The notes below the pieces were generated by a model. The model searched no databases. It had not been told where the DNA came from and saw only the letters and a list, made by a program, of their open reading frames with translations. A program made the translations under genes and the position numbers. Source: a virus. From it: 28,753 bases of DNA. How positions within the stretch are numbered: position 1 is the first letter of the stretch; the number at the start of each line of letters is the position of its first letter. The stretch is taken from IMG/VR virus record IMGVR_UViG_3300032242_002468, positions 1-28,753 of that record, one strand, 5' to 3'. This document shows positions 1 through 83 of the stretch, in pieces.

Positions 1-48
1 CGGGTTCTACTATTTAGATTTCCCTAAAGGCACTCAAATTTTACTCTC
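1..48 (-). ncRNA. Group I self-splicing intron, 5' portion (partial)
   Basis: The intron would begin GAGAGT directly after exon ACTT. A P1 helix can be drawn: exon ACTT pairs with GAGT further in (33-36 on the plus strand), with the U·G wobble expected at a group I 5' splice site, and extends through GAG/TTT around a short loop. Downstream comes AGGGAAATCTAAATAGTAGA then CCCG, which resembles the P4-P5 region of phage T4 td (GGGGAA...TAGTAGA...CCCG) and of the cyanobacterial tRNA-Leu intron (AGGGAAACCTAAA). The catalytic core (P7, P8, guanosine site) and the 3' splice site are off the window. Confidence 0.7.
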
Positions 49-83
49 AAGTCTCTTGTGTCTACCTATTTCACCATCCGGGC
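1..83 (-). tRNA. tRNA-Leu (probably UAA), 5' half, interrupted by a group I intron; partial
   Basis: Read on the minus strand, 83 to 49 forms the 5' half of a leucine tRNA: acceptor strand GCCCGGA, D stem GTG/CAC, GGTAGA in the D loop, then anticodon 5' stem AGAGA and CTT. The match stops exactly after U34, the point where cyanobacterial tRNA-Leu(UAA) genes carry a group I intron. From 48 down to 1 the sequence no longer pairs as a tRNA. The 3' exon must lie left of the window, so the anticodon (UNN, most likely UAA) and splicing cannot be confirmed here. Its own strong promoter lies at 126-154. Confidence 0.8.

What the first reader, a model, noticed from the sequence alone, without database searches (positions are those of the whole stretch)
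1..83. Phage tRNA-Leu split by a group I intron at the cyanobacterial insertion site
The minus strand gives a textbook 5' half of tRNA-Leu that stops after U34. What follows can pair with the exon as a P1 helix with the diagnostic U·G at the splice site, and then shows a GGGAA...TAGTAGA...CCC segment like the T4 td intron P4-P5 region. Group I introns between positions 34 and 35 of tRNA-Leu(UAA) are a classic of cyanobacteria and plastids; in a phage tRNA such an intron would be rare.
Basis: partly seen in the sequence, partly recalled or inferred. Interest (0 to 1): 0.88.

Follow-up and report, generated by a model that had tools for sequence, protein, structure and literature searches.

The report
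Phage leucine tRNA with self-splicing intron
A large virus of bacteria carries a leucine transfer-RNA gene whose anticodon is interrupted by an RNA that most likely cuts itself out, and many related viruses carry the same thing, although a 2014 review stated that phage introns of this type had only been seen in protein genes.

Summary
Window 83-49 (minus) is the 5' half of tRNA-Leu(UAA), ending after U34; 48-1 is the first 48 nt of a group I intron, where the contig ends. A covariance model built from 19 relatives without the window scores it 94.5 bits, E 2.3e-26. Relatives supply the rest: 16 of 16 complete loci (15 of 18 stretches of the first scan plus phage Atu_ph07) splice in silico to tRNA-Leu(UAA); the structure covaries strongly; 6 of 10 loci pass Rfam's group I threshold. 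Syntenic relatives exist with and without the intron, exons identical, so natural empty sites fix the splice sites. The site is not cyanobacterial only: the same pattern is common in Alphaproteobacteria. It is not rare in viral contigs (56 stretches); 79 of 81 viral rows in an unrooted tree fall together with 2 of 110 bacterial rows. The nearest relatives have no endonuclease gene inside, but three longer viral tRNA-Leu introns do. Known ribozyme class in an under-recognised host. Splicing is inferred, not shown.

The parts
49..83 (-). 5' exon of tRNA-Leu(UAA), tRNA positions 1-34 (ends at U34)
   Evidence: identical 35 nt in the annotated intronless tRNA-Leu(TAA) of EBPR podovirus 3
1..48 (-). 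first 48 nt of a group I intron, cut by the contig end
   Evidence: 47 of 48 nt identical to the intron of L016; model R1 E 2.3e-26 for 1-83
49..52 (-). P1, exon strand ACTT (U34 at the splice site)
32..35 (-). P1, internal guide GAGT; its first G forms the U.G wobble with U34
   Evidence: U.G in 36 of 36 sequences
12..29 (-). P2 hairpin with GAAA loop (outermost pair is a C-T mismatch in the window, C-G in L016)
   Evidence: helices 4 and 5, each of the 7 pairs with changes on both sides; alignment
1..4 (-). first 4 nt of the 5' strand of P3 (CCCG)
   Evidence: P3 covaries in relatives, 4 of 5 pairs with changes on both sides
1434..4023 (-). tRNA array: Cys, Lys, Asn, Ile, Pro, Trp, Tyr, Arg, Asn, Thr, same strand as the split tRNA-Leu
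   Evidence: 10 tRNAs; Arg-Tyr-Trp-Pro-Ile-Asn-Lys in the same order in L016

Best explanation
Window 83-1 (-) is the 5' part of a functional phage tRNA-Leu(UAA) gene interrupted between U34 and A35 by a small group I intron of the bacterial tRNA type (subgroup name IC3 from recall); in its closest syntenic relatives the intron is 212 nt and holds no endonuclease gene. Most likely mechanism: in the transcript the exon end ACUU pairs with the intron's GAGU to form P1 with U.G at the 5' splice site; guanosine bound in P7 attacks after U34; the freed U34 attacks after the terminal G of the intron; the exons join to a tRNA with anticodon loop CUUAAAA (anticodon UAA). Anatomy, boundaries and selection on the structure are shown in relatives; catalysis is inferred. 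The phage is probably a large T4-like phage, and the intron belongs to a lineage carried mainly by phages that is gained and lost among close relatives, by recombination of the tRNA gene between co-infecting phages and perhaps by homing driven by endonuclease-bearing alleles.
For: Model E 2.3e-26 with the window left out of the model. 16 of 16 complete loci splice to tRNA-Leu(UAA). In the wider set all 112 bacterial loci with a boundary and 85 of 87 viral loci do so; the boundaries there were chosen by anticodon-stem pairing, so this is partly by construction, and the 2 failures are two copies of Atu_ph07 whose 3' site that script set wrongly (right). RF00028 over threshold in 6 of 10 loci and in 9 of 12 records, the 3 without being the intron-minus ones. 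Covariation: 96.7% of cells paired, 351 double changes against 108 in shuffles and at most 64 when slid. Empty sites: L419, L420 and L422 lack the intron at the syntenic place and have exons identical to intron-plus L421; BLASTN of the window against them starts exactly at window 49. T4-type major capsid protein over cut-off in 8 of 13 related records.
Against: The window holds only 48 nt of the intron: no P4-P9, no 3' exon, no RF00028 match. One P2 pair is broken relative to L016. RF00028 stays under its threshold in 4 of 10 loci (L001, L004, L006, L008) and in all 5 viral loci with long introns. No splicing, RNA or mobility data. gp23 was not found in 5 of 13 related records, nor in the 3 with endonuclease-bearing introns, though several are fragments.
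Confidence: 0.93

Rival explanations
1. Broken tRNA remnant: a tRNA-Leu fragment followed by a degenerate intron that no longer splices.
For: Only 83 nt are in the window, the contig stops there, and the terminal P2 pair is mismatched.
Against: 47 of 48 intron nt identical to an intact syntenic relative; the structure is kept by compensatory changes across the group; relatives splice to complete tRNA-Leu.
Confidence: 0.05
2. Assembly chimera: the contig end joins a phage tRNA exon to an intron from another organism.
For: The contig ends inside the intron; the record of L002 also ends inside it; L006 has acceptor halves that do not pair fully, as a chimera through the conserved intron would.
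Against: Two other contigs with 91-92% identical flanks carry the same intron at the same syntenic place (L421 = L016, L418 = L140).
Confidence: 0.03
3. A tRNA intron removed by proteins (archaeal/eukaryotic type) or a group II intron.
For: Position in the anticodon loop is shared with protein-spliced tRNA introns.
Against: Insertion after U34 with a U.G P1, conserved P7 and terminal G, and RF00028 matches in relatives.
Confidence: 0.01
4. On how it spreads (not exclusive of the best explanation): the ORF-less copy is a homing intron, mobilised in trans by an endonuclease, either the HNH gene at window 4048-4632 or one encoded by endonuclease-bearing tRNA-Leu introns of other phages.
For: Three viral contigs have tRNA-Leu(UAA) introns of 677-861 nt at the same site that encode an HNH (L143, L161) or LAGLIDADG (L153) protein. 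The intron is presence/absence polymorphic. An HNH gene lies 4 kb away in the window's array.
Against: Strong relatives of the window's HNH gene occur in intron-plus (G001, G004, G007) and intron-minus (G002, G003) records alike. The closest relatives L016 and L140 have no endonuclease in the intron. Exon and intron distances correlate (Mantel r 0.64), as expected if the gene mostly travels as a unit.
Confidence: 0.2

Closest known systems
Group I introns of bacterial tRNA-Leu(UAA) (cyanobacteria and plastids from recall; proteobacteria and others here)
   Same: Same gene, same site U34|A35, same size class; U.G P1, P2 with GAAA loop, P3-P9 core
   Different: Carried in a phage tRNA array; viral copies fall together in the tree, apart from 108 of 110 bacterial rows
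tRNA-Leu(UAA) intron of Agrobacterium phage Atu_ph07 (NC_042013, L001)
   Same: Unannotated intron-containing tRNA-Leu(UAA) in a cultured phage; splices in silico
   Different: 278 nt against 212 in L016, with insertions around P5 and P8; exon sequences differ
Group I introns of phage protein genes (e.g. beside terminase of Vibrio phage VEN, capsid gene of Pelagibacter phage HTVC120P)
   Same: Share blocks of the same core by BLASTN
   Different: Interrupt protein genes; VEN has a homing endonuclease gene next to the match
tRNA-Arg annotated over 286 nt in Microcoleus phage My-WqHQDG (OR578706)
   Same: A phage tRNA gene with a long insert sharing part of the core
   Different: Other tRNA, only 25% of the query aligns

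Membership tests
Group I intron | U.G wobble at the 5' splice site in P1 | tested here: met
   In the window and in 36 of 36 aligned sequences
Group I intron | P3-P9 core with P7 guanosine site and terminal G | tested here: inconclusive
   Outside the window (contig ends in P3); present in the relatives, most helices with covariation, P7 invariant
Group I intron | Match to Rfam RF00028 over the gathering score | tested here: inconclusive
   Window none; 6 of 10 relative loci, 9 of 12 records, 0 of 5 loci with long introns
Group I intron | Autocatalytic splicing with guanosine | not testable with these tools
   Needs RNA
tRNA-Leu(UAA) U34|A35 intron | Host gene is tRNA-Leu(UAA), insertion between U34 and A35 | tested here: met
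   5' side in the window; 3' side and anticodon from relatives and from empty sites with identical exons
Homing (mobile) group I intron | Endonuclease gene inside the intron | tested here: inconclusive
   Not visible in the window (cut). 87 viral tRNA-Leu introns of 185-248 nt as extracted have no ATG frame over 56 aa, but that extraction allowed at most 420 nt. Of the 56 stretches, 43 have such short introns, 5 have longer ones (3 of them with HNH or LAGLIDADG genes) and 8 gave no boundary
Homing (mobile) group I intron | Presence/absence polymorphism at an identical site | tested here: met
   Of five syntenic relatives two have and three lack the intron; L420 and L422 are identical over 1300 nt and probably one phage
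Phage genome | Phage structural genes on the same contig or in close relatives | tested here: met
   Tail-fibre and minor coat protein families in the window; gp23 capsid over cut-off in 8 of 13 related records

The most novel reading that the evidence does not exclude
Phage tRNA arrays are a reservoir and vehicle for tRNA-Leu group I introns. A phage lineage of the intron, some members armed with HNH or LAGLIDADG endonuclease genes, moves between phages and now and then into bacterial chromosomes; this would explain how introns without endonucleases became scattered over bacterial phyla (a puzzle stated from recall). Evidence that does not exclude it: 79 of 81 viral rows fall on one side of a supported branch with only 2 of 110 bacterial rows; one of these, L129, lies in a bacterial chromosome segment and sits beside Atu_ph07; three viral tRNA-Leu introns encode endonucleases. 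A further possibility, untested, is that splitting the anticodon loop shields the unspliced tRNA from host anticodon nucleases.
Probability: 0.35. Interest if true: 0.8.

Novelty: new variant of a known kind. Interest (0 to 1): 0.65.

Why it matters
[quoted passage not shown] Here intron-split tRNA genes appear in many viral contigs and in two cultured phages (Atu_ph07, tRNA-Leu; Gordonia phage Daredevil, tRNA-Lys) whose records show no tRNA there. [quoted passage not shown] the Atu_ph07 paper used it, reports 33 tRNAs, and 'intron' does not occur in its text (PMC6102473, passages). Natural plus and minus alleles in one phage lineage, and endonuclease-bearing versions elsewhere, make gain, loss and homing into a tRNA anticodon directly testable.

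Tried and rejected
ARAGORN and Rfam on the window give nothing at 1-83. The window's HNH gene as mobility factor is not supported by presence/absence. ARAGORN's intron mode called many loci Tyr(ata), Ser or Phe; by inspection nearly all of these show the CTT|AAAAT tRNA-Leu site with a shifted boundary. Boundaries in 18 loci with other tRNAs were tried by brute force: a CAU tRNA split after U36 in L165, L193, L226, L251 and L265 (a boundary I chose among several calls in most of them); the rest is ambiguous or single calls, so no count is claimed. My first statement that the viral tRNA-Leu introns lack endonuclease genes rested on a script limited to 420 nt; on recheck three longer ones carry such genes, and I raised interest and the novel case a little and the homing rival from 0.08 to 0.2 for that reason. 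Phage origin of L143 and L161 was not confirmed by the genes scanned (L143: 4 proteins without PHROG match; L161: 1 endonuclease match of 2; L153: a virion structural protein match), and gp23 is in none of the three. The first tree (198 rows; 3 bacterial introns over 300 nt dropped; Atu_ph07 rows cut short) was redone with the full Atu_ph07 intron, without its duplicate and without six long-branch rows, five viral and one bacterial (191 rows); there the bootstrap had not settled and long branches remain. An AU test did not reject the 44-row window group as one clade (p 0.135), which does not prove it; the free tree breaks it. The inner P8 helix that I drew is poorly supported (61% and 50% of cells paired). 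Covariation used 35 of 45 viral rows plus the window; 10 duplicates or near-duplicates were left out. The gamma-proteobacterial tRNA-Leu intron paper that I recalled was not held.

Full report
Check of the observation. The minus strand of window 83-49 reads as the acceptor, D-arm and 5' anticodon half of tRNA-Leu and stops at C32-U33-U34. The next 48 nt run to the contig end. The record is only this 28,753-base virus record, so it cannot be extended. ARAGORN and Rfam find ten other tRNAs (1434-4023, minus) but not this one. The sequence after the exon can form P1 (ACUU with GAGU, U34.G) and then a hairpin with a GAAA loop.

Relatives supply the rest. BLASTN of the 83 nt against phage records gave 58 records, 20 listed: two copies of Agrobacterium phage Atu_ph07 match through the exon border (query 8-80), the other 18 listed all end at query position 35, the exon end. 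An exact 24-nt exon-intron pattern found 18 stretches in viral contigs. Fifteen of these and Atu_ph07 contain a complete intron and 3' exon in the stretch held; all 16 spliced sequences are called tRNA-Leu(UAA) by ARAGORN. The other three (L002, L010, L018) are cut within the intron; the record itself ends there only for L002. RF00028 passes its gathering score in 6 of the 10 loci given. On L016 the match covers the full model, 60.7 bits.

The window's piece is the same element. In the alignment 47 of its 48 intron bases equal L016, the difference being the outermost P2 pair. A covariance model built from 19 relatives without the window hits window 1-83 (-) at 94.5 bits, E 2.3e-26; the next hit has E 2.4.

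Structure. I wrote the group I and tRNA helices on L016 and counted pairs on 36 sequences: 96.7% of cells pair; 40 of 70 pairs have changes on both sides; 351 cells carry double changes against a shuffled mean of 108 and at most 64 when partners are slid. P2, P3, P6, P6a, P8 and the acceptor, anticodon and T stems show compensatory changes; P1 and P7 never vary, which says nothing either way. The inner P8 helix is badly drawn (61% and 50%). So the RNA is under selection for structure in this group.

Natural empty sites. The protein gene at window 787-1416 has five relatives in viral contigs, 89-93% identical. Two (L418 and L421, the contigs of L140 and L016) carry the intron in the neighbouring tRNA-Leu; three (L419 on a 200,570-bp, L420 on a 335,035-bp, L422 on an 86,814-bp contig) do not. 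The exons of L421, L419, L420 and L422 are identical over the 85 nt compared, and BLASTN of the window against the three intronless loci starts at exactly position 49. L420 and L422 are identical over 1300 nt and probably one phage. EBPR podovirus 3 has the identical 35-nt 5' exon followed directly by AAAATCTC. This fixes both splice sites without a model and shows gain or loss among close relatives.

Which phage. The window has tail-fibre, minor coat, ribonucleotide reductase, endolysin and HNH genes. Of 13 related records 8 carry the T4-type major capsid protein over cut-off, including the two large intronless syntenic ones; five do not, several of them fragments. In 12 records searched with RF00028 nine have a match and the three syntenic intronless ones none; eight of the nine have a single match.

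Distribution. The core motif alone matched at least 120 viral stretches. Of 87 viral tRNA-Leu intron loci, 38 hold five or more other tRNAs in the stretch fetched. These collections may contain misclassified bacterial contigs, and patterns drawn from the phage sequences favour its kin.

Tree. In a careful unrooted tree of 191 introns, 79 of 81 viral rows and 2 of 110 bacterial rows form one side of a supported branch (97/94); a set of 32 rows with L016 is all viral (96/88). The virus/bacterium label needs 5 changes against 61.0 in shuffles (the first tree gave 7 against 63.9). Five viral rows and one bacterial row with long branches, and the Atu_ph07 duplicate, were left out. One of the two bacterial rows (L129) sits on a chromosome segment with DksA, MoaA and S4 genes, next to a viral contig and Atu_ph07 (100/86), so an exchange between phage and bacterium is likely; its direction is not shown.

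Mobility. The 87 viral tRNA-Leu introns extracted with a limit of 420 nt have no ATG frame above 56 aa. Rechecking the 56 stretches without that limit, 43 have short introns, five have introns of 574-861 nt, and eight gave no boundary. The five long ones splice to tRNA-Leu(UAA). Three encode a protein inside: L153 a LAGLIDADG endonuclease (Pfam E 2.3e-26), L143 an HNH protein (Pfam 26.8 bits, cut-off 21.4; PHROG E 1.3e-30) and L161 a similar one (Pfam 17.9 bits, under cut-off; PHROG E 5.6e-31). None of these five loci reaches the RF00028 threshold, and phage origin is backed by a structural protein only for L153; L143 has 19 other tRNAs. The free HNH gene of the window's array is found with and without the intron. 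Exon and intron distances correlate (r 0.64, 0 of 2000 permutations as high, 35 distinct rows), with three discordant pairs under the limits set, such as L149/L158. I infer that the tRNA gene mostly moves as a unit by recombination, while some alleles may home.

Function. Inferred: the intron splices itself out and restores the UAA anticodon. No adaptive role is shown. A shield against anticodon nucleases is conceivable, given published evidence that phage tRNAs evade such nucleases by loop mutations (PMC10264068, passages), but nothing here tests it.

Literature. Ten searches of the held open library were made; in their listings and in the passages opened I saw no description of a group I intron in a phage tRNA gene. 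The library lacks most subscription papers, so this does not prove absence. The closest statement is the 2014 review that phage introns known then were all in protein genes (PMC3984707, passage). The Microcoleus phage record carries an annotated 286-nt tRNA-Arg. The subgroup name IC3, the general mechanism and the view that tRNA-Leu introns are usually without endonuclease genes are from recall.

Noticed in passing
L143 9201-9641, L161 7179-7622, L153 2940-3527: HNH (two) and LAGLIDADG (one) genes inside tRNA-Leu(UAA) introns of viral contigs.
   Followed up: partly
L019 3064-3526: GOLLD RNA (RF02032, 201.8 bits) lies in the tRNA array of a relative and contains a tRNA-Lys.
   Followed up: no
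L011 4375-4449; L019 6834-6908: tRNA-like gene with a four-base anticodon call (ttac) in the arrays.
   Followed up: no
L165, L193, L226, L251, L265: The same intron core interrupts a CAU-anticodon tRNA, most likely after U36, in viral contigs; L165 has this besides its tRNA-Leu intron.
   Followed up: partly
L217 / L287 (Gordonia phage Daredevil): tRNA-Lys(UUU) with a 238-nt intron by ARAGORN's intron mode in a cultured phage, no tRNA annotated there.
   Followed up: partly
L285, L292, L293, L294, L296, L297: Parts of the same intron core by BLASTN between or beside phage capsid, helicase, DNA polymerase and terminase genes.
   Followed up: partly
L291 (LR756501, 735 kb uncultured phage): A huge phage carries a tRNA-Leu(UAA) intron of this type; the record has no annotation.
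   Followed up: partly
window 3085-3615, 4861-6621: A 2OG-Fe(II)/Tet-JBP-like oxygenase (under Pfam's cut-off) and a Nol-like carbamoyltransferase near the tRNAs, possibly for modified DNA bases.
   Followed up: no
window 6888-7340: Rubrerythrin/ferritin-like protein gene in a phage.
   Followed up: no
window 85-134 and 2896-2941: Short blocks that recur in relatives' arrays (L140 1629-1678; L016 7050-7095, just before its tRNA-Leu), perhaps shared promoters.
   Followed up: no
L006 4476-4772: 5' and 3' acceptor halves do not pair fully, as if a chimera (natural or assembly) through the conserved intron.
   Followed up: no
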